Shown: piece after piece, positions 19 to 63,922 of the stretch
How the letters are laid out: the number at the start of each line of letters is the position of its first letter
How positions within the stretch are numbered: position 1 is the first letter of the stretch
Assembly: GCA_009746045.1 (NCBI GenBank)
Contig: RPFO01000670.1
Span: 1,695,476-1,759,475 of the forward strand
Reading direction: 5' to 3'
DNA length: 64,000 nucleotides
Source of the DNA: Mesostigma viride
Taxonomy: Eukaryota > Streptophyta > Mesostigmatophyceae > Mesostigmatales > Mesostigmataceae
Program-made: the position numbers and the translations under genes
The notes under the pieces: model-generated
The model's input: the letters and a program-made list of their open reading frames with translations, nothing else
Database searches by the model: none
What the model was told of the DNA's origin: nothing

Positions 19-3000
19 GACCCCGGCGCGGCAGTGTTTGCCTCGGACCACCGCAAGAGGGAGGACGAGGAGGAGGCTGACCCGGTGAGTATGACCACGC
101 AGGGGCGTGGCGGCAGGGTGAAGGAGGCTGTCCCTGTTAGTGGGGGGAGAGGGAGTTTGGTAAGGGCAAATATATTGGTGCAGGGGGCATAGAGTGATGG
201 GCGAGGGGCTGTCGGGGGGGCATGCATGCTTTGTGGCTGGGGCGCGGAAGAGGAGGATGCAGGCTTCCGGGGTAGGGGTGGGGGAGGGGGTGCCCGGAGA
301 TAGGGTGGTGTGCGCCTGGAGCGGGCCATGAAGATCCGAGTTGACATGCTGTTGCTCGGGTGCATCGTGAACAATTCCAGAATCGCCGGGCAAGGAAGCT
401 GGTTGTAGTCGCCGCTCGCCATCCCATGGCGGCTAACACACTCGCCATGATGCCCACGCTGTCCCCATGACTGCTGTCAGTCGGTTTGGGCCGTCCCCTC
501 ATTGCATTGTTGTCCTGACGCACGGCAACTGGCCCACTCCCCGTTGCCCTCCCTGTGTGCCACCCCCCATTGTGCCGGCCATGTGCGCTCTCCCGCCCCC
601 TTCCCTTCCCTCCTGGCCACACGGAGCAGGGCTTCTCGGAGATGCAGATCAAGATGTCGGACGACATGGGCAACCTGGCCAAGGAGAGGGAGCAGGAGAT
701 TAACAAGGTATGACAGACATGGAGGAAGGGAAGGGGAGGGGGCAGGCAGCAGAAGAGGAAGAAGGTAGGGGGGGGGTGACATTTAGGGAGCAGGAGATCA
801 ACAAGATTTTCCAAACATCGGCGAAAGGGCTGGCGGGGAAGTAGGGGGGAGAGAACAGGAGGTTAACAGGGTGAGGGGGGTAGGAGCGCAGCAAGGTGAG
901 GGCTAGATGCTCCCCCCTATCTGCCTTGTCGTTGCTCGCTGCCAACGCCACCGCCCAGTGCTGACGTGTGGCTTGACACATTCGCCCCTTGCCCCCCGCT
1001 ATCGTCGGCTGCTTGGCTCCAGATCGTGGATTCGGTCAACGACCTGGCGTCGGTGATGCAGGATCTGGCGCTACTCGTCATTGACCAGGTAAGGGGCCGA
1101 TTCGCGCGGTCCGTAACGATGCGTCTCTTTCTTGCAGGGTACGGGGCGGCGAACGAGGGCTACGGCGAGCGATAGCACCCACTGTCAAGGAAGATGCTAA
1201 TATTAATCCGGGGGGTCTAGGGTTCAGGGTCACTGTACACCATGTTTGCCAACCTTGTGCGGGGAGTTCACCTAACCGTGGTTGCAACGAGCGGCGGCGG
1301 TTGCTACAGGTAGTGCACATGGCAGTGCCTCGCTGCTTCTTAAGCCCGGCACACCTATGGGGTGGTGGCCATAGGGTAGGTGGCCGTAGGGGTGGTGGCA
1401 TGAACACATGGTTGGTTTATTAAATGAAGGGGGGGGCGGTAGGGATGCGTATGCACCGTAGGCGGTAGTGCCCCGCAGTTAAGACTAAACGGCTCGCGCC
1501 CACCCGGCCACTCGCCTCTTTGCGGGCAAGGTTAAGATCGATTCGTTTGATTGCGTCATGTGCAGGGGCAGCATGACGTCGTCTATGGGCATGCGCCGGT
1601 GGTTCCTCCGGCTGTTTACTCTTCACGATGTAGAGATTCATGTTTAGGGTTTCTTCATGCTGATCGCGTCTGTTTAGGGGAGCAAGTCTTAGGGCTAGTG
1701 CCTGTTTGCTGCGGCTGGGTTGTTGAGAGCAACTCGTTGTTCGGCCGCCTCCCAACTTTGCAAGCAACCAAGCAAGCAGCCAACCACTCAACCGACCGGT
1801 CGACCGACCGACCGACCGACCGGACGGATGAACTGACACTGACCTACCGACCGACCGACCGACCGACCGACCGACCGACCGACCGACCGACCGACCGACC
1901 GACCGACCGACCGACTGACCGACCGACCGACCGACCGACCGACCGACCGACCGACCGACCGACCGACCGACCGACCGACCGACCGACCGACCGACCGACC
2001 GACCGACCGACCGACCGACCGACCGACCGACCGACCGACCGACCGACCGACCGACCGACCGACCGACCGACCGACCGACCGACCGACCGACCGACCGACC
2101 GACCGACCGACCGACCGACCGACCGACCGACCGACCGACCGACCGACCGACCGACCGACCGACCGACCGACCGACCGACCGACCGACCGACCGACCGACC
2201 GACCGACCGACCGACCGACCGACCGACCGACCGACCGACCGACCGACCGACCGACCGACCGACCGACCGACCGACTGACCAACTGACCGACTTTCGTCTC
2301 TTACACACACGTACCTATGCTCACACATGCCTACCTAAGTGCATGACCCGTGATTGCGGTTTGTGCAGGGCACCATCCTGGACCGCATCGACTACAATGT
2401 GGAGATCGTGGCCCAGAAGGTTGCCTCGGGCGTCGTGCAGCTGGAGAAGGTGGGTATCGGATTTGTGGGTGGCACAAGGTGGCAGAAGGTGGGGGCACTT
2501 TTGTGGCTGGCCACAGCGGGGCAGCGGAGCAGCTCATGGAATGCAGATGACAAGCGAGTAGGGGTGGATATTAGATGGGCAGGCAATATAGGGAAAGTGT
2601 TCCGAGCCGCGTTAGGCCATGTAGGGACACTGCTTGTAAGCGGCCATCCTCGCCAGGATAAAAACCGCTCGCCCCGCGGGGTGTGTGCGTGTGCGGGTTA
2701 GTGCTGTGGTCAAGGGAGGGTGTTGCACCTTGTTGCTGCGGGCAAGTAGTCCCCCCTTCTCTAACTTTCATGCCCATGAGCCCTCCAGTGCCTTCTGGTC
2801 AGCGTCTCCTGGCTGGATGACCCTGTACACATCACGGACACTTATGCCCACCCGACAGGGTTTCCTTGGGGGTGTTTCCTGTCAAACACTTGTAGTCGCC
2901 CTATGGCTCGCACAGTTGCTGCAAAGTTTCTCGTCACCTTGATGCACAGTTGCTGCAAAGTTTCTCGCCACCTTGATGCTTGTCCACGTGACGGCATGTT

Positions 3001-3254: not shown

Positions 3255-3580
3255 AGTAGGGCTTAGGAATACATGGGTTGCAACGGTGCTGGGCAATTTG
3301 GCCCACAAAGAGATGCCCTTCTTTCCCTGCAGTTCCAGTTTGAGGCGGCCCATTGACCAGTTGGCCGATCTAGTCACTTAGCGGATTCCTCGCGCTACTT
3401 AGGGCAGTCCTGACAGCAAGAATGCTGAAGCGTGCAAGTGGCTCACGTTTGTGCTAAGTTTCTCCGTGCCATATGATAATAACAATGTTGCTATTTGCGT
3501 CAAGGAACAGTTGTCTCACTTTATACTGGTGTAATTCCTGTCTTCTTGTTTGCACCCATCCATCCATCCATCGGGGTTAA

Positions 3581-3633
3581 TGCTCCGTGACTCCCCAACG
3601 GGAGCACGAGTCTAATTCATTAATTAATCAATT
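3581..3633 (+). mobile_element. Stem-loop plus TTAA-rich tail (3' end of LINE-like family)
   Basis: TGCTCC...GGGAGCA arms around a CCCCAA-containing loop, followed by an imperfect ATTAATTAATCAATT tail. The same module recurs at 17485, 28399, 40700 (beside a reverse-transcriptase remnant) and, reversed, at 46021-46068. Confidence 0.65.
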
Positions 3634-3691
3634 CCTGTCTTCCCGTGGATGCAAATCCTACAATGTTACTAATCTTGACAACTACATAACT

Positions 3692-4778: not shown

Positions 4779-7700
4779 TTAGCACGCGGGCAACGGCTCG
4801 TAGTAATGGTGCGGCAGCGCCGCGGGGTGCTTCTCCGGCAGCAGGCCCAGCTGCGTGACGTCATCAGCATGGAAATATGTGGACGCGGGCGGCGCGCCGC
4901 CCAACATGCGGACGGCCTCGTTGCCCGTGATCATCCACCACGCTGCCGCGAGCGAGTTATCCACCGCGTCCTGCACCTTGAGCTCCAACGGGCTGGGCAT
5001 AACCGGCTGGCCGATACCGGCCGCATTGAGGAAGCGGTCCGTGGCCGCCTCCCATGAGAGCGCGTACGACTCCTCCGGGGACAGCGGCTTGGGCTCCGCC
5101 GCCGCCGCCTTCTTGAGGCACTCCTGGAACTCGGCGGGGGTGCGGAAGGTGAGGCAGTTGGAGAAGGACTTAAAAAACTCGTTGGACGGGTGGTCCGCCA
5201 CCACCACAAACTTGCCCATGGCCAGCGCCTCGGCCGTGGTGGTGCACAGCACATCACTGCTGCTCGGGTTGACAAACACTTTGTACCTGAATGTGTGTGC
5301 GTGGGGGCGGACGCATGTATGGGGCAGTGAGGGGGGTGGGCGTGGCAAAAGGACACGCACGGCGCAGACGCAGAGGAAAGCCGCTCCATGTGAGTAAACC
5401 AATGACGCACATACACCATGCACAAGTTATGCCATGCTTGCTGGCCAGATGAGAGCGAGAAAGTTGTGCCGAACCAAGTATCCAGCAACGAACACCTCCC
5501 ACAGACAGTAAAAGCTACGGTGTGCGCTGGCATGGCGATGGACATGTGCTCAAGCATGGCCAAGGAGCATGCCCCCGCCTCCCGAATGGCGCAGGTCCAC
5601 CAATAAGTACCACTGAATGGGTACAAACCCCTCCAACAAATCCATAATCATCTGCACCCCCTAGCTGGGGCCACACGAACCTTTATCCTATCCATAAGAC
5701 AACCGGCTCAAGCCAGACATCTAGACCGCTGGGTGAACGCACACCCTCATCCTAGACAGCTACGCACACAGCGCGGGAACCGTCACCTCTACCGCCGCCC
5801 CTCCATGCAACTGCCGCACCACTCACTTGTGCAGGTCCTTGTCCGCATGGTCCTTGGCGCCGTGGAAGACAAAGTCCAGCCCCTTGCTCTTCACCTCCGA
5901 CTGGATGGCCTCGGCGTCCGGCCCGCTCCCGTAGATGTCCATGTGCGCCGCGCTGCCAGTCTCCTGCGCAAACCCGGTCATCAGGTCAACCAGCTCGCGA
6001 TACCCCTTGCCCCACAGAGCCTTGCCGATGTAGTACATGCTGCCGCCATCACCCTCGCCGCCCTTGCCGCCGGCATCCGCGCTGGCACCTGTCACCCCGT
6101 CCATGGGCGCAGGCTTGTCCATCGCGGCCAGGTCGGTCACCGAGGCCGAGGGGGTCATGCAGGGGGAGGGCGTGGACGCCAGCAGCGGGGTGGAGGAGGA
6201 GGATGCCTGGCGAGACATTGACATGATCGCCGTGCTGGAAGGGACACGGTCCGTGCTGCCAGACGCCACCGAGACACCCGCAGTGGTGCCGCTGCTGGCA
6301 CTGGCACCGCTGGTGGAGGGTGACAGCGGCGGCGGCATCATTGCGGCGGACAGGCGTGATGCATACTCGGCGGCCTTGGCGGCGCCGATTTCAAGGAACT
6401 TGGGCGACACGCCGTGCACGTTCACAATCTGTGGGGAGACGGGGGGGGGGGAGGAAGGGGGGGGAAGCGCAGGGGGGGGGGGGGGGGGAGAGGAAGGGCA
6501 AGGGGCGGAGGGCAAGGGGGTTGCATGGGTGGGCAGCCGAGCGGCCAGGGCCAACACATACGTGTCATGGCCAGGATACATTCTGACCTTTCGGATACGT
6601 TTCCTTTCCTGGTAGGGACAAAGAGTGTGAGCCGTTTTAAGGAGGATGCGAGGCACAGCTGTTGGTAACTGGGCGAGAGATGGGCCACTATTTATGGGCT
6701 TGAACCTACCATCTTCCCAGCCAAAAACTTGACCACATCCAACGAGAGATCAGTTGAACAACTACGCACAGATTCACCACCCTGTGTGAACCCTGCCTTG
6801 ATCCACTCTTGCGCATCCGCCCCTACCTATGAGCACCCGCACTGTCAGCGGGGATTCCATCATCCTCCCTGCCCTCGCAGCAACATGTCTGCACCCCAAC
6901 CATCCACCCTACCAACTTGGGAATGATGTATGCTGCCTGCGGGCCATAGCCCCTACAAGCAAGCGCGGCAGGTCCTGTGCCACCCACCCTACCTACAGGC
7001 GGTGGGCCCAAAACCATCCAAACATCCACTCATCCCAAATCCTACCTGCGAGCGCGGCAGGTCCTCTGTGGCACCCGACAGCCGCAGAACCTTGTCACAG
7101 TGCACACGCGTGCACAGCTTGTTGGCGCCGGCGAGGAAGGCGGCGAGCAGCTCCCCGTTGTCCACGCGGCGGGCATACTCCAAGTAGTTGGTGTGCACCA
7201 CACCCACCACGTGCTCAAACTTGTCCGTCCAGCGGCGCCCATGGTGGTACCTGGCACACTCGGCCACAACCAGCCACCACCCACCAACAACCGGCAGCCA
7301 GCCAGCCCACAACCAGAGGAATTGCAAGGGGGGAACCGAAATGGAGGCATAAAAGGCGGGAACACTGTGAGTGGGCCGAAAGATTTCCAGGGGAAGTGTG
7401 TGTGTGTGTGTGCGGGGGGACTATATACCTTACACTCACAGGCGGGCGATGGCCAGGGGACGAGGGCCAGGGCCAGAAGTGCCGCGCATCAACCCGCACG
7501 GCTGCGCTGTGCATGGTGGCAGACAAGGCGGACATTGACATGTGACTCCATGGCATGGGATGGCATGAGCATGGCATGGCATGGCGAAGTGCCTGCGACT
7601 CATGCGCAGCCGCGCTTTGCTCAAAAGCGTGGCACTGCCTCACGGAAAAGGAGAAGTGCTTGTGCCTGCATCGCACGCGCAAGCAGCATCCACCCCAACA

Positions 7701-18172: not shown

Positions 18173-18345
18173 CTAGTGCGGGCCCTTCTTGGGCTCCTTG
18201 ATGAATGAGGGGTGCCGCTCTTTCCTGCAGCCACCGACCCTGAAATGACAACTCGGGCACTTCTTCATCTCTTGCTCATACGGCACGACCTTGAACCCGG
18301 TCCTCTGCTTGCAAGAGTCACAATCTTGGCTGGAGGTATGACAGT
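18173..18345 (-). CDS. Possible last exon of a small zinc-binding protein
   Basis: A pyrimidine-rich acceptor (TGCGCCTGCAG) precedes 18345, and the frame that follows runs 57 codons to a stop at 18173. It contains paired cysteines CDSCKQRTG and MKKCPSCHFR about 17 residues apart, plus further cysteines (DCH, GGC), the pattern of a zinc ribbon or knuckle, and a basic C-terminus KEPKKGPH. I do not recognise the family and found no upstream exon, so it could be a pseudo-exon. No function is assigned. Confidence 0.3.
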
Positions 18346-20037: not shown

Positions 20038-23000
20038 CTATTCGGTCTTATTGCCCTCACCAGTAGTGCATGGCTCCTTGATATTGACGACCCCCACGTC
20101 TGCCAGCGCGCTCAGCAAGAACCACTCCTGTGCATCGCGCGTCTTGTTGACGGGCTGCTCGCACACGTTGTAGTAGAGGTACTGCACGCCCTCCGCGTGA
20201 CCCATCTGTGTGTAGTCGAGGCACCGCCGCCGCCACACATACAAAGGCCATAGCATGCACACAAGGGCGACACAGAACACGTGCCATGGTGACATTCACA
20301 TCCCAGAGTTGGCCATGGAACCCATCCATGCCACCGCGCAAACCAGAAACACGATGTGGTGGTGGGGGGGAGAGTGCAAAGAGCAGGGCTGCGGCAGCTG
20401 CCCTGCGCTGCCCCTGCCACGTTCATGAAACGGAACCCTCACGAGATGGAAAACAGACACCCGTTGTACAGGCCCGAGGGGAAACTGTCCCATATGCCCC
20501 CCACTCCCTTGCCAGGGTGCCCTGCTGCTGCACGGTGAACACGGTTGTTTGAGACAGGAACACCTGATATACAGATAGGCATGACGTCCATATGATATGT
20601 CACCTCGTGCCTGCAGTCACCGCACTCGAGCCACCGCGTTCGCATCTCGGCACGAAAGAAGTTGCCTTGGTGGCACCCTCGTGACGGCATCCTTGCTCCC
20701 CACATTCCCCTTATCACCTGAAAAGATAACTAAAGACGACATGGTATACTCACATCCAGCAGATAGGCAGTGCACAACACAAAAATGATATGATAAAACC
20801 TCTTCTAACATAATGGCATACCGACATCACGCCCACATCGCCTTACCTGCATCCCATACACATCAATGCTGCGGCACTTTTGCGCGGCGACGAGCAGCCC
20901 CATCAGCCCCAGCGAGGCATTATCCAGTATACGCGCAGCGTACTCGGTAAACGGCGGCGCCATGCCCGCCACCTTAATGCTGGGGTCCGTCTCCCTCACG
21001 CGCACGAGCGCCTCGAGCGAGGGCCGCGCGCGCAGGGGCACCAGCAGAACCTCCTTGGTCGCCTCATGAAACACCCAGTTCTGGCTGTTGGTCAGGCGGT
21101 GGGTGGTGCGCGTGCCCACCGCGCCCTCGTATCCAGCCGTGGGCGCGCTGTCAAAGCGCATGATCATGTCGTGGTCATCAATGTCGGGCCCAAAGGAGCG
21201 GCCCAGCAGCGCGCCCGAGTTGCCCACCACGGCGCAGGTGGGCCACATGGGGCGGCCAAAAGGGTCCTCGGGGGGGAGCACCTGCCAGGGGTTTAGGATG
21301 GGCAAGCACGTGGGCCGAAGGGCAATGATGTCATGGTGTGCCATGCGGACTCATTCTCGTGGTAATTCCCACGCCCATGCGAGAAGCAGGGCGGGACAGC
21401 ACACCAAGTTGTCACAGAGCGCAGAGCGGCGTGGAGGTTCTTGCATACACATAACGCAGCATGCTCCGGTAATGCGCCTTTTCTGGGTGGGACTCCACAA
21501 GAATCTGAGGCCTGCTTTCCTAGGAACAACCCACGTGGACGACTTGATTTATTGTCGTACTTACAGCGGTGAAGGGCATGGATGCCAACGTACATTGTCT
21601 CATCGATACATGGGCGATCTGTTGGCCATGGCACATGGTGACATGCTAACATGCGAGGCACATAGTAGTGGCGTTGCTAGCCCTCCCACATGCGCAAGCC
21701 TCCTAGCCTCGCGTGTGCAGGCATACAAATACGGAAATTACAACTGCATGGACACACCTGCGTGCGTGAATACAACATGCACCATGAGCCATGCACCCAT
21801 GTACCACGACCACGAATCTCGACAATAATGTACAAAAATACTACAACATGCAAGAAAAGAAGTACAATACAAGAGTACGCACACAGAATGCAGAATTTGG
21901 GGCATGACAGATACATGGCCAGAAGAGCTTGTCACAGAACAACAGTTGGCCCTCCACCGTGAGCACCTTGCCCTGTCCCGCCATCCATGCTGTCAGCTAG
22001 CTACTGTAACAGTGACCGCACACGCCCCTACCTTAAGCAGCTTGCTACGTCCCACCATCCATGCTGTCAGCTAGCAACTGTAACAGTGACCGCACGCGCC
22101 CCCACCTTGAGCAGCTTGTCATTCACAGGTCCCAGCACGCGGTGCCCTCGGTCATGATCTGCCTCGTGCCCCAGCAGCTCCACCACCACCTCGCTCGCGT
22201 TGGCCGCCACCAGCGACCGCCGGTTGAGCGCAAACGTGTCGTCGAACGCCCAGCTGCGCGCACCCAAGCCCAGCAATGAGGGAACGGCCACCAGCTTGGC
22301 CTCCTGCCATGTGCAACGGTGCACAGGTCCGAGGCAAGAGAAAAGGAACAATAAGAACACATTATCTGCGAGAGGATACGAACGATAGGAACACATGATC
22401 GACAAGAGGATAGGAACGATAGGAACACATGATCTGCGAAATGATAGGAATAATAGGAACACATGATCGGCACAAGGACAGGAACGATAGGAAAACATGA
22501 TCGGCAAGAGGATAGGAACAATAAGAACACATGATCTGCACAATGATACAAACGATAGGAACACATGATCTGCGAGAGGATAGGAACGATAGGAACACAT
22601 GATCGGCAAGAGGATAGGAACGATGGGAGCACATGATCGGCAACATAATAGGAACGATGAGAGCACATTATCTGGATGGAGTTCACAAATAGAGCTCAGC
22701 TTCAGAGGGACTACACATATGTGACTGGCAGACTGTTGGGTGGGATGCGCATGGCCCGGCATAGGTAATGGCTAACGTCCGCCAAAGGGGAAGGCACGCG
22801 CACGAAACACAGCCGAGGCAACAACACAAGCAAGGGGCAAGGTACGGTGCACCCATGCAGGACAAACCTACCATTCTGCACTAGTCTACTAATGCAACCA
22901 AGCTGTTCGAATTTGTGTCGTTCCAAAGCTGTTCATGTTCCCATCGTTCCAAAGCTGGTCATGTTCCCATCGTTCCAAAGCTGTTCATGTTCCCATCGTT

Positions 23001-26000
23001 CCAAAGCTGCTCATGTTCCCATCGTTCCAAAGCTGTTCATGTTCCCATCGTTCCAAAGCTGTTCATGTTCCCATCGTTCCAAAGATGCTCATGTTCGCAT
23101 CGTTCCAAAGCTGGTCATGTTCCCATCGTTCCAAAGCTGGTCATGTTCCCATCGTTCCAAAGCTGGTCATGTTCCCATCGTTCCAAAGCTGGTCATGTTC
23201 CCATCGTTCCAAAGCTGGTCATGTTCCCATCGTTACAAAGCTGGTCATGTTCCCATCGTTCCAAAGCTGGCCATGTTCGCATCGTTCCAAAGCTGGTCAT
23301 GTTCCCATCGTTCCAAAGCTGGTCATGTTCCCATCGTTCCAAAGCTGGTCACGTTCCCATCGTTCCAAAGCTGGTCATGTTCCCATCGTTCCAAAGCTGG
23401 TCACGTTCCCATCGTTCCAAAGCTGGTCATGTTCCCATCGTTCCAAAGCTGGTGATGTTCCCATCGTTCCAAAGCTGGTCATGTTCCCATCGTTCCAAAG
23501 CTGTTCATGTTCCCATCGTTCCAAAGCTGTTCATGTTCGCATCGTTCCAAAGCTGGTCATGTTCCCATCGTTCCAAAGCTGGTCATGTTCCCATCGTTCC
23601 AAAGCTGTTCATGTTCGCATCGTTCCAAAGCTGGTCACGTTCGCATCGTTCCAAAGCTGGTCATGTTCGCATCGTTCCAAAGCTGGTCATGTTCCCATCG
23701 TTCCAAAGCTGTTCATGTTCCCATCGTTCCAAAGCTGGTCATGTTCCCATCGTTCCAAAGCTGGTCACGTTCCCATCGTTCCAAAGCTGTTCATGTTCCC
23801 ATCGTTCCAAAGCTGGTCATGTTCCCATCGTTCCAAAGCTGGTCATGTTCCCATCGTTCCAAAGCTGGTCATGTTCCCATCGTTCCAAAGCTGGTCATGT
23901 TCCCATCGTTACAAAGCTGGTCATGTTCCCATCGTTCCAAAGCTGGTCATGTTCCCATCGTTCCAAAGCTGGTCATGTTCCCATCGTTCCAAAACTGGTC
24001 ATGTTCCCATCGTTCCAAAGCTGGTCATGTTCCCATCGTTCCAAAGCTGGTAATGTTCCCATCGTTCCAAAGCTGGTCACGTTCCCATCGTTCCAAAGCT
24101 GGTCATGTTCCCATCGTTCCAAAGCTGGTCATGTTCCCATCGTTCCAAAGCTGGTCACGTTCCCATCGTTCCAAAGCTGGTCATGTTCCCATCGTTCCAA
24201 AGCTGGTCATGTTCCCATCGTTCCAAAGCTGGTCATGTTCCCATCGTTCCAAAGCTGGTCATGTTCCCATCGTTCCAAAGCTGGTCATGTTCCCATCGTT
24301 CCAAAGCTGGTCATGTTCCCATCGTTCCAAAGCTGGTCATATTCCCATCATTCCAAAGCTGTTTATGTTCCCATCGTTCCAAAGCTGGTCATGTTTGCAT
24401 CGTTCCAAAGCTGCTCATGTTCCCATCGTTCCAAAGCTGTTCATGTTCCCATCGTTCCAAAGCTGGTCATGTTCCCATCGTTCCAAAGCTGGTCATGTTC
24501 CCATCGTTCCAAAGCTGGTCATGTTCCCATCGTTCCAAAGCTGGTCATGTTCCCATCGTTCCAAAGCTGGTCATGTTCCCATCGTTCCAAAGCTGGTCAT
24601 GTTCCCATCGTTCCAAAGCTGCTCATGTTCCCATCGTTCCAAAGCTGGTCATGTTCCCATCGTTCCAAAGCTGGTCATGTTCCCATCGTTCCAAAGCTGG
24701 TCATGTTCCCATCGTTCCAAAGCTGGTCATGTTCCCATCGTTCCAAAGCTGGTCATGTTCCCATCGTTCCAAAGCTGGTCATGTTCCCATCGTTCCGAAG
24801 CTGTTCATGTTCCCATCGTTCCAAAGCTGTTCATGTTCCCATCGTTCCAAAGCTGGTCATGTTCCCATCGTTCCAAAGCTGGCCATGTTCCCATCGTTCC
24901 AAAGCTGTTTATGTTCCCATCGTTCCAAAGCTGTTTATGTTCCCATCGTCCCAAAGCTGTTCATGTTCCCATCGTTCCAAAGCTGTTCATGTTCCCATCG
25001 TTCCAAAGCTGGTCATGTTCCCATCGTTCCAAAGCTGGTCACGTTCCCATCGTTCCAAAGCTGGTCATGTTCCCATCGTTCCAAAGCTGGTCATGTTCCC
25101 ATCGTTCCAAAGCTGGTCACGTTCCCATCGTTCCAAAGCTGGTCTCGTTCCCATCGTTCCAAAGCTGTTTATGTTCCCATCGTTCCAAAGCTGGTCATGT
25201 TCCCATCGTTCCAAAGCTGCTCATGTTCCCATCGTTCCAAAGCTGGTCATGTTCCCATCGTTCCAAAGCTGGTCATGTTCGCATCGTTCCAAAGCTGGTC
25301 ATGTTCCCATCGTTCCAAAACTGGTCATGTTCGCATCGTTCCAAAGCTGGTCATGTTCCCATCGTTCCAAAGCTGCTCATGTTCCCATCATTCCAAAGCT
25401 GGTCACGTTCCCATCGTTCCAAAGCTGGTCATGTTCCCATCGTTCCAAAGCTGGTCACGTTCCCATCGTTCCAAAGCTGGTCATGTTCCCATCGTTCCAA
25501 AGCACCCCTGCCACTGGAAACTGTTGCGCCCAACACGCCATGTAATCCAGGAAACAAGGTGGATGCCGGATGCGACACAAAGCACAGCACGGGCAGTGCC
25601 ACATGCTTGCTGCTCAGGGTAGACAGGAGAACTTGAAGCCCGGCATGTACGGCCACATGACATCCTTCATGCTGGATTCTGTCCACCAGTACCAGCCTGG
25701 TGCACGCAGCCCCTCTCAGTCTTTTCCTACCGCCGTAAGCCATGCAGCCTTATGCTTGCAGCTGTGCACTTTTTCAACCCCAAACGCTCTAGCCATGGCC
25801 CTTCAGCCACAATCCCTCAGCAAGAAGCCCTTAGATATAAATCCTCGAGTCAATGTAGCCCTCAACCTTCTGGCCCTGAGCCATCTTGCAAAACCTCTAG
25901 CACCAAGACCAGTTTGCCCAAACACCTCTGAAGCAGCATGCAGGCGGCCACGGCAAACACAAATGTGCGTGCAAACCCAGTGCAAACAGTACCAGGCAGC

Positions 26001-36801: not shown

Positions 36802-36912
36802 CACACGCGTCGCACGGCTGGGCTACCTTGCTTGCTACTGCGGTCGCTCGTGTGGTTGCTACCGCGGTTGCTCGTGGTCGCTAGTGCGGCGCGTGAGTGC
36901 CCCCCGTCCGCC

Positions 36913-38363
36913 ATGCGCGGACCCCATGAGGTTCTGGGCCTGCCGCGGTCGGCCTCGCTGCAGGACATCAAGGCACGCTTCCGCGAGCTGGCCATGCAGC
37001 TGTACGTGAGGGTGGTGGTGGCCATGCAGCGGTACTTGAGGGGTGGCCATGCAGCGGTACTTGAGGGGTGGCCATGCAGCGGTACGTGAGGGGTGGCCAT
37101 GCAGCGGTACGTGAGGGGTGCAGCGGTACGTGAGGGGTCGCTGGCCATGCAGCGGTACGGGGGGGGGGGGGGGGCATGCAGCGGTACGTTAGCGTGGGGT
37201 GGTGGTGACGGATGGTGGAATTGGGGAAAAGTAATCTTCTATTGTGGGTGGCGGTGGTGGCGGTGGTGTTGGATGGCGGTGTTGGATGGCAGCACTAGGA
37301 ATGAGCAGCTTTGTGGAAGGTGGGAAGGGTGGTGACGGGGGGTGGCACTAGAAGCCTATCATGCATGGTGGAAGGTGGGAATTCAACAGCTGTATTTGGG
37401 GGGGTAGGGGGTGACGTATGGCGGAAGGAGGGGAGCTCAACATGACAACATCTGTACAGAAGTGGGGGATGGTCTTCATCTGAAAGAGAAGATTGACCCC
37501 AATCGTGGATCTCTATCAGTTGGGATTTTCCTGGCTCAAGTTTTCAAGGCGCTACCCATGCCACCAGTCGTAGCCATCATGTAATGCCAATCATGGTCGT
37601 TTTGATCGCATGGGCATGGTGGGCACACTCTTCCACACGTATGTTGCTCCTTGCTTGCTTGTTGGGCAGGGGCAGCTTTTGTCCTTCCCGCATGCTCTGA
37701 TAACCACTTGATGATTACTACTCCTTATGTGCGGTCCGATCGCCACCAGCCACTGCCCATGTTGCGGGGCTGAGGGAGGCTTTATGGCCGTGACATTGTT
37801 GTTGCCGCCGTGCGTGCTGCAGCAAGACAGGGCCACAGCGATGGGCGCGTATCACCACCACTTGGCCACGGACGGCATATTGCTTCAATGGCCCCTTGCT
37901 TCCCTCACGTCATCCCTCCCCTCACCACACATCGCTTGCCCCCTACCCCACCCCCCCTGGCATCCCCAGCCACCCTGACCGCAGCAAGGTGGACAGTGAG
38001 CGCTTCAAGGAGGTCTCAGAGGCCTACACCTCGCTCACGCAGCGGCACGGCCGGTGGGCCACTCCCCACCGCCCCATGACGCATGAGGAGGCCCTGCGAC
38101 GTGCGCAGCACGCGGCGGCGCTCTCTCGCTCTGGCGTCCGCAACGTGGGCAACACGCTGCTCTTCTGTGCGGCCTCGCTGCTGGCCGGCTGCGGCCTGTT
38201 TGCGGGGGCGCTGCTCATGGGGCGCACCGACATGTACCGCGACACGTACGGCCACCGGCGTCTGCCGGTGATGGAGCCGGGGCAGGACCGGAGCACACAC
38301 CAGGCGGGGATCATCCGCATGCTTAAGCAGCTCAAGGCCACTGGGAAGCAGGCGGAGGAGTGA
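36913..38363 (+). CDS. Small single-span DnaJ (J-domain) protein
   Basis: Two exons, 36913-37001 and 37970-38363, give 160 residues. The J domain (1-55) starts RGPHEVLGLPRSASLQDIKA with the HPD triad at 31-33 and ends FKEVSEAYTSL; the usual Tyr of YEVLG is His. The intron falls directly before HPD. A membrane segment lies at about 90-114 (VGNTLLFCAASLLAGCGLFAGALL), followed by a short polar tail. J proteins stimulate Hsp70 ATPase activity; a J domain at the N-terminus followed by one membrane span suggests recruitment of an Hsp70 to an organelle or ER membrane, but the compartment is not evident. The start is the first ATG with the J domain in frame. The 5' end of the intron is an amplified copy of the exon-1 donor region. 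Confidence 0.8.
36991..37195 (+). repeat. 25-bp minisatellite made of the DnaJ exon-1 5' splice site
   Basis: The true junction is GCCATGCAGCT|GTACGTGAGG at 37001/37002. Starting at about 37020 the intron repeats GCCATGCAGCG GTACTTGAGGGGTG (two units), then GCCATGCAGCGGTACGTGAG GGGT (two full units and one missing its first bases), then two eroded units (about 37147 and 37175). At least three repeat units keep a full GGTACGTGAG donor consensus. Confidence 0.92.
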
Positions 38364-48835: not shown

Positions 48836-48924
48836 TAAAAAGGCGCATCGAATGCAAGTGGTCTGATCGAATTTGGGGCTCAGACGCAAAAGATCCGAAC
48901 TCCGCCGTCAGCCATACCGCCGTC

Positions 48925-52600: not shown

Positions 52601-55600
52601 TGCACCCCCCATGGCCCCATCCCAGCACGCACGTTGCCCCGTTCCCAGGCCCACTATACAAGGTGGCCCCGTTCCCCCACGGCGACGGCGCATCATTCCC
52701 CTATTAACCCCCCAAACGCACCATGCCCCCCACACCGATGAGCAGCAGCGGTCGGCGGCCGAAGCTGTCGACATAGGCGATGGAGAAACCAGTCATCAGC
52801 AGCTGCAGCCAAGCGGGCGAGACACCGGTGCAGGCAGCCAAGTGGGCCGTGAAAGAGAGACCATTAAAGAGATGCACCGTCAGGAGCAACAGGAGCAGCC
52901 GTCGAGAGAAAATGGGTACAGGGGGCAGGGGTAGGGGCACAGGAAACCACGGCCGAGAGAGCAGGCACCTTGGTCGCCAGCAGGTGCGAGATGGTCTACA
53001 TGAGATGAAAGGCACCCAGTCTAGCGGGTTCCAGCATGAAACCTGCCAGCTAGGCAGCTCCTTATCCTCCTAGCCACTGCCTGGTAGTATTGTCCGCAGC
53101 AGAATATCTATTGACTTGCAGCAAGAACTCCGCAAGTGCACATGGCTTTCTTCTTCAAAGCCACTGGCGGGTATCAAGTGCATTCGCTTCTAAAGCTAGC
53201 CCCAGCCATTAGAGCTCTTTGAAGGCAAGCACCACGGAACATGGCCTTCAAGGGCACCGCATGATACCAGTACTAACGCTGTACCTCCATAACATAACTC
53301 ACTATACCAGTACTGACTCGGAATGACAAACTCACTGCTTTCACCCTACTGTTGCCAGGAGCAGACAATGCAAAATGAGTGCTACAACATGTGGATCCAG
53401 TTGCTGGCTATGGCCGCCGCTCCGACAGCAGGCCGTGGCACATACCCTGTCCCATAAGCTTATCCATGCCCAATAAGTCATAGGGCTCCTTTGTGTCCCC
53501 ATCTAGGTATCCACGTCTGCCTGGGCCTTGTCCCGTCCTTGTGACACCCCACATAAAATCCCTTATGCTGCTTGCCTCATACTACTGGAAATACATCGTC
53601 ACCTGGCCCTACCTTGAAGCAACCCAGCAGGACAGAGACTTTGGCTGCGTCCGACGCGTTGGCAAACCCGGACTCCTGTAGAAAGGGGACGTACGAAGGG
53701 TAAGCAGGGGAGGGAAGCAGGCACGCAGGCAGGTAAGTTCTGATCTTGGTCCTCTACAATCGTTACTGGGGGCTGGGAGAGGAAGCTACTCACACAGCAC
53801 ATAGGTGCACTAGCCCACAGCCCGTAAGCAGGCCCACATGTACTATGCGGGGGATACTTGACCGCGCGGGCAAACCACATGCCCCTCACATAGCAGCAGA
53901 GGATCGGCTGTCCATCCATCCTGGCTGTCCATCCATCCTGGCTGTCCATCCTGGCTGTTCATCCACTATGGCCTGTCCATCCTGGCTCCTCATCCTGGCT
54001 GTTAATCAATTGTGGCCTTCCTTACTTTGAAATGGGTGGGAAAGTCGGCTGACGGCCATAATGACGGGCAAGCCAACACACCGGGTCACAGGGATGCCCT
54101 AAGGGGGGCGCGACTCACCTGGAAGATGGCCGATGCGTAGTAGAGCACACTCGGCTGGCCCGTGATCTGCACACAAGGCACGGCGGTGGAGAGGATGGGC
54201 ACGCATGGCACAGGTTTATGTCTGCAACCGGCCCACTAGGCACCCAACCGCACAAGTGTAGCGAAGGCTTTGCCTGGCAAATGGTGCGGTGTGACGAGTG
54301 GCAGCGGAAGGTGCCAGCGAGCTACCCATGGACACGCGTCGACGCATGTGCCGGTGGAGGTTTACAGCGAGCACGCCGCTTGTCACGTGAAGTGCTCGTA
54401 GGGCCCGCCTTGCAACCCAGGGTGCTATCCAGGGTCACCGTGCATGATGGGCAGTCTGTGTGGGAGGAAATTCCAACCAGAGTGCCATTCTACCTGCGAC
54501 AAGCCTCTAAGTGTTTCCCTGGGGTTGCCGCTCACAACCCGCACAACTTAAACAAGTTCCACCCCAGAAAGCTTTCAGAGCATGGAGGGAAGACAATAAA
54601 TTGTAGTCACAATGCCCAAACAACAAGTGGGTTCTACCGACCCCGTATAATATCACACAACCCGATACAAGCATGCATGCACCGCATAGGGTAGGAGGCA
54701 TTGACGAGGGGACGGCTGTAGCCTGCAGGTGCATCACATCCAGCTGCACCACGCTTTTCTTTGTTCGCCTTGATTTCTTTCATGGAGTTGCTTGAAACAA
54801 GAAGTCAGACAACTAAAACCATTAACAAAACCAAATCGACAGCCAAGAAGCCTCTTTTCTGTCCCACGAAGTCTGCAGGTGCACACTGGGAGCTGAGCAA
54901 GTCCCCTGATGCACTGCAAGCATGTCGACACTAAGACGTGATACCTAAGATGTGACCCCTGACTTATGCCTCCGATTTGTACCTATGGCTGCGATGCCTA
55001 AGGAGTAATACCTGAGGTCTGACACTAAGACGTGATACCTGCTGGAAGAGCACGAGGCCGGTGCCGATGATGAGACCCTTCTTGTTGGGCCCCTGCAGCA
55101 GCTCCTGGAACCCACTCACGAGGTCCTTGTCACCCCCTGCCCCTCCCGCCCCCGCTTGTTCGCTCGTGGCAAGTACCGTCGCCGTCTCCTCTACCTCCGC
55201 TGCCAACGACGCCTCCGACGCGCCACTGCCGCGGATTCGGCGCAGCGAGGCCAGCGCGTCTTGCTTGGCATTTTCCAGCTTCCCCTCTAAAGAGGCGAGG
55301 TTGGAGGGCAATATGGATGGCCAGGAGGTGGGAGGGAGGGAGAGAGGGGGAGACATGTTGGGTCGGAGAATGCAAGGGAAGGCAGGAAAAAGCATTAGTT
55401 CAAGGATTGGTCCCCAGCACCACATGGCCCTGCTAACACAAGAGGGTAGGCAATCCACTACTGCTGGCACACCCCGTGCCTGTGCAGCTCTACGGCACGT
55501 GGTGAAGTGGCCATACAGAATAAGTCCAATGCGCTCTCGTGATCTCCTGATACCGTTTACCTCACCCCCAGACTGCTGTAAAGTTACACCCAGGTTTGCC

Positions 55601-58600: not shown

Positions 58601-61600
58601 CGCCAGCCAGACGACTGCGGCCTGCGTCCACAGAGGATGTGACAGGGCGACAACTCCGGCTCTACTGGCAAACGTATCCCCATGGTCGTGCCTATCAAGG
58701 CATAACCTGGCTCGGATGCGACTAAGTGCGGTGCCAGCCTGGAGCATCGCACCCAGGACGGTCCCCACATGTGGCGTAGGCGAGGTCAAGTCACTGGGTT
58801 GTGGGTTGTGATGTTACGAGGTGGTGGGATCTGAATGAAAAGTGGTCAAGCAACACAGCGCGATGGTACCCAGGCGTAGGAAACACAGGGCCCACAAGGG
58901 GGTATTGGGGACCAAGGGGAAAACCGCAGGACATTCAGGGCATTTGCATGGGTGGCAACAGCAGCGCGTGTGCATGGGGGGCAACAGCAGCGCATTTGCA
59001 TGGGTGGCAACAGCAGCGCGTGTGCATGGGTGGCAACAGCAGCGCGTGTGCATGGGTGGCAACAGCAGCGCGTGTGCATGGGTGGCAACAGCAGCGCGTG
59101 TGCATGGGTGGCAACAGCAGCGCGTGTGCATGGGTGGCAACAGCAGCGCGTGTGCATGGGTGGCAACAGCAGCGCGTGTGCATGGGTGGCAACAGCAGCG
59201 CGTGTGCATGGGTGGCAACAGCAGCGCGTGTGCATGGGTGGCAACAGCAGCGCGTGTGCATGGGTGGCAACAGCAGCGCGTGTGCATGGGTGGCAACAGC
59301 AGCGCGTGTGCATGGGTGGCAACAGCAGCGCGTGTGCATGGGTGGCAACAGCAGCGCGTGTGCATGGGTGGCAACAGCAGCGCGTGTGCATGGGGGGCAA
59401 CAGCAGCGCGTGTGCATGGGTGGCAACAGCAGCGCGTGTGCATGGGTGGCAACAGCAGCGCGTGTGCATGGGTGGCAACAGCAGCGCGTGTGCATGGGTG
59501 GCAACAGCAGCGCGTGTGCATGGGTGGCAACAGCAGCGCGTGTGCATGGGGGGCAACAGCAGCGCATTTGCATGGGTGGCAACAGCAGCGCGTGTGCATG
59601 GGTGGCAACAGCAGCGCGTGTGCATGGGTGGCAACAGCAGCGCGTGTGCATGGGTGGCAACAGCAGCGCGTGTGCATGGGTGGCAACAGCAGCGCGTGTG
59701 CATGGGTGGCAACAGCAGCGCGTGTGCATGGGTGGCAACAGCAGCGCGTGTGCATGGGTGGCAACAGCAGCGCGTGTGCATGGGTGGCAACAGCAGCGCG
59801 TGTGCATGGGGGGCAACAGCAGCGCATTTGCATGGGTGGCAACAGCAGCGCGTGTGCATGGGTGGCAACAGCAGCGCGTGTGCATGGGTGGCAACAGCAG
59901 CGCGTGTGCATGGGTGGCAACAGCAGCGCGTGTGCATGGGTGGCAACAGCAGCGCGTGTGCATGGGTGGCAACAGCAGCGCGTGTGCATGGGTGGCAACA
60001 GCAGCGCGTGTGCATGGGTGGCAACAGCAGCGCGTGTGCATGGGTGGCAACAGCAGCGCGTGTGCATGGGGGCAACAGCAGCGCGTGTGCATGGGTGGCA
60101 ACAGCAGCGCGTGTGCATGGGTGGGAATAGCAGCGCGTGTGCATGGGTGGCAACAGCAGCGCATTTGCATGGGTGGCAACAGCAGCGCGTGTGCATGGGT
60201 GGCAACAGCAGCGCGTCTGCATGGGGGGCAACAGCAGCGCGTGTGCATGGGTGGCAACAGCAGCGCGTGTGCATGGGTGGCAACAGCAGCGCGTGTGCAT
60301 GGGTGGCAACAGCAGCGCGTGTGCATGGGTGGCAACAGCAGCGCGTGTGCATGGGGGCAACAGCAGCGCGTGTGCATGGGTGGCAACAGCAGCGCGTGTG
60401 CATGGGTGGCAACAGCAGCGCGTGTGCATGGGTGGCAACAGCAGCGCGTGTGCATGGGTGGCAACAGCAGCGCGTGTGCATGGGTGGCAACAGCAGCGCG
60501 TGTGCATGGGTGGCAACAGCAGCGCGTGTGCATGGGGGGCAACAGCAGCGCGTGTGCATGGGTGGCAACAGCAGCGCATTTGCATGGGTGGCAACAGCAG
60601 CGCGTGTGCATGGGTGGCAACAGCAGCGCGTGTGCATGGGTGGCAACAGCAGCGCGTGTGCATGGGTGGCAACAGCAGCGCGTGTGCATGGGTGGGAATA
60701 GCAGCGCGTGTGCATGGGTGGCAACAGCAGCGCGTGTGCATGGGTGGCAACAGCAGCGCGTGTGCATGGGTGGCAACAGCAGCGCGTGTGCATGGGTGGG
60801 AATAGCAGCGCGTGTGCATGGGTGGGAATAGCAGCGCGTGTGCATGGGTGGCAACAGCAGCGCGTGTGCATGGGTGGCAACAGCAGCGCATTTGCATGGG
60901 TGGCAACAGCAGCGCGTGTGCATGGGTGGCAACAGCAGCGCGTGTGCATGGGTGGCAACAGCAGCGCGTGTGCATGGGTGGCAACAGCAGCGCGTGTGCA
61001 TGGGGGGCAACAGCAGCGCGTGTGCATGGGTGGCAACAGCAGCGCGTGTGCATGGGTGGGAATAGCAGCGCGTGTGCATGGGTGGCAACAGCAGCGCATT
61101 TGCATGGGTGGCAACAGCAGCGCGTGTGCATGGGTGGCAACAGCAGCGCGTCTGCATGGGGGGCAACAGCAGCGCGTGTGCATGGGTGGCAACAGCAGCG
61201 CGTGTGCATGGGTGGGAATAGCAGCGCGTGTGCATGGGTGGCAACAGCAGCGCGTGTGCATGGGTGGCAACAGCAGCGCGTGTGCATGGGTGGCAACAGC
61301 AGCGCGTGTGCATGGGGGGCAACAGCAGCGCGTGTGCATGGGTGGCAACAGCAGCGCGTGTGCATGGGGGCAACAGCAGCGCGTGTGCATGGGTGGCAAC
61401 AGCAGCGCGTGTGCATGGGTGGCAACAGCAGCGCGTGTGCATGGGTGGCAACAGCAGCGCGTGTGCATGGGGGGCAACAGCAGCGCGTGTGCATGGGGGC
61501 AACAGCAGCGCATTTGCATGGGTGGCAACAGCAGCGCGTGTGCATGGGTGGCAACAGCAGCGCGTGTGCATGGGGGGCAACAGCAGCGCGTGTGCATGGG

Positions 61601-63922
61601 TGGCAACAGCAGCGCATTTGCATGGGTGGCAACAGCAGCGCGTGTGCATGGGTGGCAACAGCAGCGCGTGTGCATGGGGGGCAACAGCAGCGCGTGTGCA
61701 TGGGTGGCAACAGCAGCGCGTGTGCATGGGGGGCAACAGCAGCGCGTGTGCATGGGGGGCAACAGCAGCGCGTGTGCATGGGGGGCAACAGCAGCGCGTG
61801 TGCATGGGGGGCAACAGCAGCGCATTTGCATGGGTGGCAACAGCAGCGCGTGTGCATGGGTGGCAACAGCAGCGCGTGTGCATGGGTGGGAAGAGCAGGG
61901 CCAATAGGTGGGCCGTGGCTGCCCCTGGGGCATAAGGGTGGGCGAGAATGAGGGTCGGGCGTGAGAGGCAAAGGCCAGGCAGTCTACCTGTGGCGCCACA
62001 CATGGGAAGGTGGCGTAGTGAGGTCATGCATTTCCATGAATGCAGCTACACCCTCAGAGCACAGCAAGCCACATTAGACCATGCTGAGCCGATGGGTCCC
62101 ATATGGGACCCCTGCCGCTTGGCTGGCTTCCAAAGCTCTAGCCCGCATGCCTTACCACGGCGCCGGACGCTCTAGCCCGCATGCCTTACTACGGCGCCTG
62201 ACGCTCTAGCCCGCATGCCTTACTACGGCGCCTGACGCTCTAGCCCGGATGCATTACTACGGCGCCTGACGCTCTAGCCCGCATGCCTTACCACGGCGCC
62301 GGACGCTCTAGCCCGCATGCCTTACTACGGCGCCGGACGCTCTAGCCCGCATGCCTTACTACGGCGCCTGACGCTCTAGCCCGCATGCCTTACTACGGCG
62401 CCGGACGCTCTAGCCCGCATGCCTTACTACGGCGCCTGACGCTCTAGCCCGGATGCATTACTACGGCGCCTGACGCTCTAGCCCGCATGCCTTACCACGG
62501 CGCCGGACGCTCTAGCCCGCATGCCTTACTACGGCGCCTGACGCTCTAGCCCGCATGCCTTACCACGGCGCCTGACGCTCTAGCCAGCATGCCTTACCAC
62601 GGCGCCTGACGCTCTAGCCCGCATGCATTACGACGGTGCCTGACGCTCTAGCCCGGAAGCCTTACCACGGCGCCTGACGCTCTAGCCAGCATGCATTACG
62701 ACGGTGCCTGACGCTCTAGCCCGCATGCCTTACCACGGCGCCTGACGCTCTAGCCCGCATGCCTTACTACGGCGCCTGACGCTCTAGCCCGCATGCCTTA
62801 CCACGGCGCCTGACGATCTAGCCCGCATGCCTTACTACGGCGCCGGACGCTCTAGCCCGCATGCCTTACCACGGCGCCTGACGCTCTAGCCCGCATGCCT
62901 TACCACGGCGCCGGACGCTCTAGCCCGCATGCCTTACCACGGCGCCTGACGCTCTAGCCCGCATGCATTACTACGGCGCCTGACGCTCTAGCCCGCATGC
63001 CTTACCACGGCGCCTGACGCTCTAGCCCGCATGCATTACGACGGTGCCGGACACTCTAGCCCGGAAGCCTTACCACGGCGCCGGACGCCAGTGGAGACAG
63101 GTTGTACCAGTCGGTCCCGCTCAGCACGGGATCCTGCGCGCACACGAGGGGGAAGGAGTGCGGGAGTGAGACGGAAACCACACGCATGCGGGTGGCATGT
63201 TATTTCTGGAAGTGTGTTATTAAGTTGCAGGTGTCAGCATTACGAGGGTACAGCTTTACGCATGGTGGTTGCCAGCGTGCAGCCACAGACCGTATTAGAA
63301 GTCGACAGGATCAGTTCTCAAGGGCTGGCCTGTTTTTCATTACAGAGGGCGTGAGTTGCGAATGGGGAAGGGGAACTGCAGTTTCAGAAACGGTTGCTGG
63401 ATGGAGTAAGCAAACGGGCACTGGTTTCATACCTTCAAGGAAATAAGGGCCCCTGAGGTAGATCCGATGTCGTACCCAAACAGAGCTCCACCCACCGCCG
63501 GGAACAGAAACCTGGCAGGCAGGCCAGCATCGCATACACCCCAAATCCAGAAGCGGGTAAGCCCTTGGCAAATTATTTGTGAAGGCAAATTATTTGTGAA
63601 ACCACAAGAGTGGCATTGGCAAATCTTTACCGCATGCGGCGAGGGGTGCACGATTTACAACGGTTACTGTGACACAATTCTTAACGCCAATAGCTTGTCC
63701 ACCTCCTTTCCCAACAAAGGCTGCCTTTAGTTGTCGATACACCGGGCTGTTCAGTAACCAGAAATTTTTATTCCGCCGACTAAAAGTGCCCAATAAGAAC
63801 ACAGCATTCTTAACTTACGGGGCGACGATTGATGTCCAGGACGTGCCAGAGCTGTCGTCAGGTCCTGTTGACTCCGGTTCGGGTGCCTGCGTGGTGTGAA
63901 GGGCACGAAATGCTAGGGTCAT
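49680..63922 (-). CDS. MFS sugar/H+ symporter, plant VGT1 / xylose-symporter-like group
   Basis: Fourteen exons join in frame: 63922-63819, 63511-63433, 63133-63074, 57835-57769, 57533-57409, 56670-56569, 55900-55750, 55286-55039, 54166-54119, 53675-53613, 52802-52722, 51980-51882, 50902-50765 and 49829-49680 (504 residues from ATG 63922). Signatures in order: SIVAPFLFPAVGGALFGYDI, DPVLSGTDWYNLSPL, GSLAGALGGSILAYAVADAL, GRRKELL, GRVLYGLGIGLAMHGAPLYI, ETVPAALRGRLVSLKE, LPDSPRWLLL, LVLFQQITGQPSVLYYAS, GRRPLLL, GPISWLMVSEIFPLRVRGRA and VPETKGLSLEEIE. These are the 12-helix sugar-porter motifs; the nearest plant group includes vacuolar glucose transporter VGT1 and plastid/vacuole-type xylose-symporter-like proteins. 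The first frame stays open to the window edge, so the N-terminus (possible targeting peptide) may be longer. A Gly/Ala/Glu-rich cytosolic loop (about 250-300) follows helix 6. Intron 3 is 5.2 kb of repeats. Confidence 0.9.
50011..50076. repeat. Short tandem duplication in transporter intron
   Basis: GTACAACATTCTCATGGATT and GAACAACATTCGTATGGATT, each preceded by CAAAAG, lie side by side about 30 bases apart. Confidence 0.6.
50152..50280 (+). mobile_element. 3'-coterminal dispersed repeat in transporter intron
   Basis: Shares TTTCCATCATCCTGAGCGAC through GGTCCGGATTCTCCCGATTT and ends CTGGTTGACTCTTTGGCAT, a diverged terminus. Confidence 0.7.
53906..54005. repeat. CCATCCTGGCTGT minisatellite in transporter intron
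   Basis: Six to seven imperfect 13-17-base units of (TGTCCATC)CATCCTGGC. Confidence 0.85.
55970..56080. repeat. Purine-rich minisatellite in transporter intron
   Basis: Three imperfect units of GGCAGAAATAGGAGAAAGGA GGCAGAAGGCAG. On the transcript strand this is a long pyrimidine-rich tract upstream of exon 55900-55750. Confidence 0.85.
57962..58463. mobile_element. hAT-type MITE with terminal inverted repeats and 8-bp target duplication
   Basis: The left end CAGGGTTGGGCGTAAAGGGG and the right end, read on the minus strand, CAGGGTGGGCGTAAAAGGG are inverted repeats. The element (502 bp) is flanked by identical 8-base duplications GTGTGTAC at 57954-57961 and 58464-58471. CAGGG termini with an 8-bp duplication are the signature of hAT transposons. 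Inside, both arms are studded with ACGTAA/TTACGT motifs that extend the inverted repeats imperfectly, and there is no coding capacity. It sits in intron 3 of the sugar-transporter gene. The intact duplication and termini suggest it is not very old. Confidence 0.88.
58941..61897. repeat. 26-bp minisatellite, about 113 copies, transporter intron 3
   Basis: Unit GCATGGGTGGCAACAGCAGC GCGTGT with recurrent variants (GCATTTGCATGG, TGGGGGGCAAC, a one-base-shorter TGGGGGCAAC, GTGGGAATAGC). It has no stop in several frames on either strand, producing artificial frames of over 1,000 codons. On the transcript (minus) strand the unit has no AG dinucleotide; I find only two AG-creating variants (near 60216 and 61150). 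Confidence 0.97.
62135..63076 (-). repeat. 34-bp minisatellite made of the exon-3 5' splice site, transporter intron 3
   Basis: About 27 units of GACGCTCTAGCCCGCATGCC TTACCACGGCGCCT. On the transcript strand each contains GGCGCCGTG|GTAAGGCATGC, a copy of the true exon end GGCGCCGTG|GTAAGGCTTCC at 63074/63073. Variants (TACTAC, CATTACGAC) still leave GTAAGG or GTAATG. The array begins at the exon boundary itself. Confidence 0.93.

What the first reader, a model, noticed from the sequence alone, without database searches (positions are those of the whole stretch)
784..63133. Recurrent theme: exon-end/donor segments duplicated into introns in five genes
Besides the two amplified cases, three genes show one or two copies: GT29 intron 2 (74-bp duplication with intact GTAGGG donor at 22031), the syntaxin intron after 707 (copies at about 787 and 855) and DGD1 (copy at 6957-6990 of the exon end at 7046). 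A weaker likeness exists in RBM48 after 30654 (CCAG|GTAGGC and CCAG|GTAGAT 40 bases apart). Template slippage or microhomology-mediated duplication at exon/intron borders may lengthen introns here, with the copies decaying or expanding into minisatellites. I know of no named mechanism with this signature; introner elements are dispersed insertions and differ.
Basis: inference. Interest (0 to 1): 0.85.

Follow-up and report, generated by a model that had tools for sequence, protein, structure and literature searches.

The report
Splice-donor copies repeated inside algal introns
In this stretch of a green alga's genome, several genes carry extra copies of the end of an exon and its splice donor just inside the following intron, most likely because ordinary local DNA duplications that cover a donor are often harmless and survive.

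Summary
In five genes (syntaxin-16-like, DGD1, GT29, a DnaJ protein, a sugar transporter) the last 13-30 exon bases with the splice donor recur inside the next intron, from one copy to 27 in a 34-bp minisatellite. The sixth, weak case (RBM48 at 30654) is not supported. The alga is Mesostigma viride.

In 39 hand-built introns, ungapped repeats scoring 15 or more span 5 of 39 donors and 0 of 39 acceptors; six shuffles per intron give none. Random placement of strong repeat events within their introns predicts 0.73 donor-spanning events; 5 of 22 occur (P 0.0005; 0.012 with the expectation doubled). By coverage, however, a donor is no likelier to lie in a repeat than a random intron point.

Best reading: ordinary local duplication in a repeat-rich genome. 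Donor-spanning copies are tolerated because the original donor is kept, and in four of five genes use of a copy meets an early stop. Single-gene precedents exist (human IFI6, OCT1). A donor hotspot is suggested but unproven: the pattern was found and tested in the same 64 kb.

The parts
36911..37001 (+). DnaJ-domain gene, exon 1 (ATG at 36913; donor CAGCT|GTACGTGAGG at 37001/37002)
   Evidence: Spliced product reads ...ELAMQLHPDRSK... and has a Pfam DnaJ domain, E 2.1e-14
36987..37202 (+). 25-bp tandem array spanning the donor; 7 further GTAC donor-like copies, 5 of 7 scoring above the true donor
63074..63133 (-). Sugar transporter exon ending LSPLASGAV| at the donor GTG|GTAAGG
   Evidence: same junction in JGI model Mv16978 (P0001)
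62135..63088 (-). 34-bp minisatellite: first unit = last 15 exon bases + first 19 intron bases; 27 donor copies after the true donor
   Evidence: 12 of 27 copies carry the same 9-mer donor
21951..22118 (-). GT29 intron 2: 74-bp tandem duplication spanning the donor (exon end 22106; copy donor at 22031) plus a decayed third copy
687..720 (+). Syntaxin-16-like (Qa-SNARE) exon end and donor at 707/708
   Evidence: SNARE domain E 4.2e-15; syntaxin/Tlg2 sequence similarity through the junction
785..818 (+). Syntaxin intron, first copy of the exon end (20 of 21 exon bases; donor GT lost)
850..877 (+). Syntaxin intron, second decayed copy (donor-like GGGTGAGG)
7041..7075 (-). DGD1 exon end and donor (exon end 7046)
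   Evidence: many of the 120 listed homologues are named digalactosyldiacylglycerol synthase
6952..6984 (-). DGD1 intron copy of that segment, holding GTAGG
54927..54946 (-). Sugar transporter intron 8: 20-bp exact copy of the donor segment of the exon ending at 55039 (only 2 exon bases)

Best explanation
These are ordinary local DNA duplications (lags 25-98 bp, the second syntaxin copy 163) that happen to span an exon/intron border on its donor side. Shown: the copies, their order and their strand. Inferred: a tandem duplication across a donor leaves the old exon end and old donor in place upstream and pushes only the copy into the intron. While the upstream donor stays in use the mRNA is unchanged, and in four of the five genes any transcript from a copy donor carries an early in-frame stop and could be destroyed. 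Such duplications therefore survive, decay (syntaxin, DGD1) or expand by unequal exchange into minisatellites (DnaJ, transporter). A duplication across the acceptor would more easily add bases to the mRNA and is lost. In DnaJ and GT29 most copy donors are stronger than the true one, so there the upstream donor is probably favoured by position or exon context rather than strength.
For: Copies are local, on the same strand, and best in their own intron for the five strong cases. Units are continuous exon+intron sequence, as tandem duplication predicts: 15+19 bp in the transporter, about 13+12 in DnaJ, 74 bp in GT29. The introns are repeat-rich in general: 150 of 975 random interior points are spanned by a repeat at p<=0.05 against 4 of 154 exon points. 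Ungapped repeats of score 15 or more span 5 of 39 donors and 0 of 39 acceptors. Reading into the intron meets a stop at +18 (transporter), +39 (GT29), +6 (syntaxin) and +57 (DGD1), before the first copy in all four. Donor scores: 5 of 7 DnaJ copies and the one GT29 copy beat the true donor, and 12 of 27 transporter copies equal it. Human precedent: in OCT1 an 8-bp duplication of a donor leaves both donors operative in minigenes with slight preference for the original, while in liver alternative splicing reached at most 2.1% by pyrosequencing and the authors propose mRNA decay (PMC8137991, passages read).
Against: At event level donors exceed random placement 4- to 7-fold, more than simple tolerance predicts; doubling the expectation, to allow for better detection when one arm is conserved exon, does not remove it fully (P 0.012 at score 20, 0.025 at 24, 0.23 at 28). 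In syntaxin and DGD1 the exon part of the copy is much better kept than the intron part, unlike decay of one tandem unit; a short templated insertion fits better there. In DnaJ the first copy would give an in-frame 10-residue insertion, not a stop. No RNA evidence here shows which donor is used. The acceptor shortage is clear by coverage (1 of 39, expected 4.96, P 0.005) but not at event level (0 observed, 0.73 expected). Donor duplications are not always harmless: in human SUN5 one is reported as damaging, with a two-base frameshift as one of the authors' two hypotheses (PMC7927044, one passage read).
Confidence: 0.68

Rival explanations
1. Donor borders are mutational hot spots or preferred sites of duplication, for example through polymerase-theta-type templated insertion or replication trouble at co-transcriptional structures near 5' ends of introns, so that donor copies arise more often than other intronic duplications.
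For: Event-level enrichment: 5 of 22 strong repeat events span the donor against 0.73 expected (P 0.0005), 0.012 with the expectation doubled; 7 of 38 against 1.28 (P 0.0003) and 5 of 32 against 1.09 (P 0.004) at looser scores. In syntaxin and DGD1 the copied block is short and mostly exonic.
Against: Found and tested on the same window. By coverage donors equal random intron points: 5 of 39 against 4.96 expected (P 0.61) at p<=0.01, 8 of 39 against 6.00 (P 0.19) at p<=0.05. At the strictest score only 2 of 15 events, P 0.07. No mechanism is shown.
Confidence: 0.18
2. Extra donor copies are kept because they help: they bind U1 snRNP downstream of the true donor and aid recognition of long introns or suppress premature polyadenylation.
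For: Donor-like sites are in excess in the first 100 bp of 35 introns (4 array introns left out): 25 against 13.1 in dinucleotide shuffles (P 0.003) at a loose score, 13 against 7.5 (P 0.04) at a medium one; antisense 3 and 1. 12 of 27 transporter copies keep the exact donor 9-mer.
Against: No excess at the strict score (3 against 2.9). The syntaxin copies score -8.2 and 6.0 against 11.0 for the true donor, the DGD1 copy 3.8 against 10.9, so donors are not kept there. Array homogeneity can follow from unequal exchange alone. The excess may itself be decayed duplications.
Confidence: 0.07
3. The copies are remnants of introner-like or other dispersed elements inserted at introns.
For: The window does hold short motifs that recur at dispersed places.
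Against: The five strong donor segments match nothing else in the window as well as their own intron; the copied block includes coding bases of that gene.
Confidence: 0.02
4. Chance resemblance driven by base composition.
For: 4 of the 12 re-searched candidates have better matches elsewhere in the window and one ties.
Against: Five cases exceed every draw from other genes' introns, the shuffles and the rest of the window.
Confidence: 0.03

Closest known systems
[quoted passage not shown] title seen in reference lists only; that the gene is 6-16/IFI6 and other details are recalled)
   Same: A tandem minisatellite whose units carry splice donors, in a transcribed gene
   Different: One human gene; here two arrays plus single or double copies in three further genes of one algal window, with donor use unknown
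Human OCT1 (SLC22A1) rs35854239, 8-bp duplication of the exon 7 donor (PMC8137991, passages read)
   Same: Duplicated donor tolerated because the original junction is kept; out-of-frame product scarce in liver
   Different: 8 bp from the 5' part of the intron, a polymorphism; here 25-98 bp lags including coding bases, and partly amplified
[quoted passage not shown] ATP2A1; potato RdRp gene; PMC4974935, abstract and passages read)
   Same: Tandem duplication at or near a splice border supplies extra splice signals
   Different: There a new intron is made, in potato from an acceptor-side duplication; here an existing intron is lengthened on the donor side
Tandem GYNGYN donors (PMC1779574, search listing only)
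   Same: Two donors close together at one border
   Different: Three bases apart by motif, used for subtle alternative splicing; not copies of the exon end
Introner elements
   Same: A source of intronic sequence carrying splice signals
   Different: Introners are dispersed, similar across genes and make whole introns; these are local and gene-specific

Membership tests
Donor-bearing minisatellite (IFI6 type) | Tandem array of short units in a gene | tested here: met
   34-bp, 28 units (62135-63088) and 25-bp (36987-37202). Not met by syntaxin, DGD1 (1-2 copies) or GT29 (one duplication plus a decayed copy)
Donor-bearing minisatellite (IFI6 type) | Unit contains a splice donor and the array begins at the exon end | tested here: met
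   First units run from 15 (transporter) or about 13 (DnaJ) exon bases through the donor
Donor-bearing minisatellite (IFI6 type) | Several donors of the array used in mRNA | not testable with these tools
   No RNA reads available; JGI model Mv16978 uses the first donor but is a gene model
Introner element | Near-identical copies in many genes | tested here: not met
   Best match of the five strong segments is in their own intron; best elsewhere 14-15.5 against own 21.5-28. Window only
Introner element | Element makes up the whole intron, with both splice sites | tested here: not met
   Copies hold the donor side only; no acceptor segment has a copy at score 15 or more (0 of 39)
Intron gain by AGGT tandem duplication (Rogers) | Both splice sites of the new intron come from one duplicated exonic segment | tested here: not met
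   Exon starts after these five introns have no copy in them at score 11.5 or more

The most novel reading that the evidence does not exclude
In Mesostigma viride the donor border is itself a preferred site of local DNA duplication: exon-end/donor segments are copied into the following intron several times more often than other intronic sequence. Introns would then grow from their 5' ends by serial donor duplication, leaving strings of spare donors that the spliceosome ignores by position.
Probability: 0.2. Interest if true: 0.72.

Novelty: new member of a known kind. Interest (0 to 1): 0.45.

Why it matters
If the donor/acceptor asymmetry holds genome-wide, it gives a simple rule for how introns lengthen: duplications across a donor are often free and those across an acceptor are costly. 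The DnaJ, GT29 and transporter introns are also natural tests of donor choice, because equal or stronger donors lie downstream of the true one and apparently go unused (inferred). Gene finders may fail at such borders: the JGI model of the DnaJ gene lacks the array-bearing first exon.

Tried and rejected
RBM48 30654 as a donor: rejected, since the frame continues through the GT to a stop. My RBM48 intron 4 acceptor (30985) rests on phase alone and is the weakest of the 39.

BLASTN self-comparison for counting events: set aside because it missed known repeats (GT29 i2, DGD1 i8). It had given 3 donor- and 0 acceptor-spanning introns at scores 16-18, 2 and 0 at 20, but 3 and 3 at 15. It was replaced by an ungapped lag scan, which drops simple-sequence pairs. 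Searches cut the two introns over 2000 bp to their ends; one search used full lengths. The reading-frame part used a wrong frame for DnaJ and is superseded. The repeat finder listed only one array 20 times and was not used.

Whole-exon duplication: rejected, matches in the five strong cases stop 13-30 bases into the exon. The 26-bp arrays at 22918-25503 and 58945-61898 and the 15-bp array at 35727-36225 do not look donor-derived by inspection. A repeat unit of the transporter array was sought in viral contigs: 0 matches.

Left out of the intron set: the START gene's first intron (phase not resolved) and the small exon near 18190-18345.

Papers: answered searches. None of the listed titles or abstract openings describes recurrent donor-side duplication into introns; the library lacks most subscription papers. 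PMC8724738 (passages) held nothing on duplicated donors that bears on this.

Full report
What the window is. The sugar transporter spliced from the window matches EukProt entry jgi/Mesvir1/25039/Mv16978 at 100% identity over 88% of the query, and the DnaJ protein matches Mv16975 at 100% over 81%. I take the window to be from Mesostigma viride, a streptophyte alga. Its genome paper gives a mean intron of 1142 bp and repeats filling 30.1% of intron space, and a term search of its main text found no 'tandem repeat' or 'minisatellite' (PMC6947507, passages).

Gene models. From the sequence I modelled nine genes and 39 introns, all GT-AG: syntaxin-16-like 4, START 2, CENP-X 1, DnaJ 1, NIP7 2, GT29 3, sugar transporter 13, RBM48 4, DGD1 9. 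Pfam supports SNARE, DnaJ, GT29, NIP7, CENP-X, START and sugar transporter. The DGD1 piece gave no Pfam hit but has 1650 hits at E<=0.001 among 7997 candidates scored, and many of the 120 listed are named digalactosyldiacylglycerol synthase. Introns 1-12 of the transporter agree with the JGI protein; that model reads into my intron 13 and ends there.

The five cases. (a) Transporter intron 3: a 34-bp array whose first unit is the last 15 exon bases plus the first 19 intron bases, with 27 further donor copies, all keeping GTAA; 12 of 27 have exactly the true donor's nine bases and 15 score lower. (b) DnaJ intron: a 25-bp array from the exon end; 5 of 7 copies score above the true donor, which has a T at -1. 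(c) GT29 intron 2: a 74-bp tandem duplication, 13 exon bases included, copy donor stronger (10.0 against 8.5). (d) Syntaxin intron 2: two copies, the first matching 20 of 21 exon bases but with the donor lost, the second weaker (6.0 against 11.0). (e) DGD1 intron 8: one copy with GTAGG kept but a weak donor (3.8 against 10.9).

Against chance. Donor segments reach p<=0.01 in 10 of 39 introns, acceptor segments in 1, and reverse complements in 1 and 2 (null drawn from introns of other genes, 200 draws). Ungapped repeats of score 13 or more span 9 of 39 donors and 1 of 39 acceptors (mean 0.17 each over six shuffles); at 15 or more, 5 and 0. Of 12 donor segments re-searched in the whole window, 7 match best in their own intron, 1 ties and 4 match better elsewhere. 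I count only the five cases as secure one by one, with transporter intron 8 as a marginal sixth.

Is the donor special? The tests differ. A sliding 45-bp window shows 8 of 39 at the donor border (-30..+15) at p<=0.01, 0 of 39 at the mirrored acceptor window (-15..+30), 3 of 39 at the acceptor window -30..+15, and 15% of 720 interior windows (11% of 680 without the two longest introns). A stricter test that the repeat must span the point gives donors 5 of 39 against 4.96 expected from their own intron interiors (P 0.61) and acceptors 1 of 39 (P 0.005); at p<=0.05 donors are 8 against 6.00 (P 0.19). By coverage, then, the donor behaves like any intron point and the acceptor is protected. Counting each array or pair once, donors stand out: 7 of 38 events against 1.28 expected, 5 of 32 against 1.09, 5 of 22 against 0.73 with full-length introns (P 0.0005), P 0.012 with the expectation doubled, but 2 of 15 (P 0.07; 0.23 doubled) at the strictest score. 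I think the difference arises because a few long interior arrays fill much of the intron space. The enrichment is suggestive, and it was measured on the data that suggested it.

How it probably works. A tandem duplication across a donor keeps the exon end and donor upstream and adds the copy to the intron. Reading past the true donor meets a stop before the first copy in four of the five genes (+18, +39, +6, +57); in DnaJ the first, weak copy would give an in-frame 10-residue insertion, and the stop lies at +88. Copies are thus silent if the first donor is used and mostly disposable if not. The human OCT1 donor duplication is similar: both donors operative in minigenes, the original slightly preferred, the alternative product at most 2.1% in liver by pyrosequencing, with mRNA decay proposed (PMC8137991, passages). 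Against this, a donor duplication in human SUN5 is reported as damaging (PMC7927044, one passage). Which donor is used in Mesostigma is inferred from protein conservation and gene models, not observed.

Extra observation. Donor-like sites are over-represented in the first 100 bp of 35 introns (4 array introns left out) at loose and medium scores (25 against 13.1, P 0.003; 13 against 7.5, P 0.04), not at the strict score (3 against 2.9), and not further in or on the other strand. Decayed donor duplications would do this; a helpful U1-binding role is possible but untested.

Place among known things. The arrays belong with donor-bearing minisatellites, for which a human case is in print (title only). 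They are not introners by the window test and not intron gains of the AGGT type. What is new is several cases in one small window together with the donor/acceptor asymmetry; the searches named under Tried and rejected listed no paper reporting that.

Noticed in passing
window:36911-37970 (+): The JGI model of the DnaJ gene (Mv16975, P0121) starts 'MGMVGTLFHT' from inside the intron and lacks the J-domain first exon; automatic annotation apparently failed at the array-bearing donor.
   Followed up: partly
window:49680-50765 (-): The JGI transporter model (Mv16978) reads into intron 13 and stops, missing my final exon at 49829 that completes a sugar-transporter C terminus.
   Followed up: partly
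window:58945-61898 and 22918-25503: Two very long 26-bp minisatellites (113.8 and 99.5 copies, 96% and 95% matches) inside introns of the transporter and GT29 genes, apparently not derived from the exon ends.
   Followed up: partly
window:41217-42480 (-): An apparently intronless second GT29 (sialyltransferase-like) reading frame in the same window as the intron-bearing one; Pfam GT29 E 4.8e-21. Possible retrocopy.
   Followed up: partly
window:3794, 27567, 48710 (+) and 32839 (-): Dispersed element with a tRNA B-box-like GTTCGATTCCGG, possibly a SINE family (recalled motif).
   Followed up: no
window:32433, 33952, 39585, 50236: Another dispersed repeat (GATTCTCCCGATTTCTGGCC core), four exact copies on one strand, two of them inside modelled introns.
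   Followed up: no
window:3583, 28402 (+), 46047 (-): Repeat with CTCCGTGACTCCCCAA next to TTAATTAA-like runs, resembling element ends.
   Followed up: no
window:35727-36225 (+): 15-bp array GTGAGGGATGATGGA in the CENP-X intron: most units carry a GTGAGG donor-like motif, though it does not look like a copy of the exon end.
   Followed up: no
first 100 bp of introns, whole window: Excess of moderate donor-like motifs on the sense strand just inside introns.
   Followed up: partly
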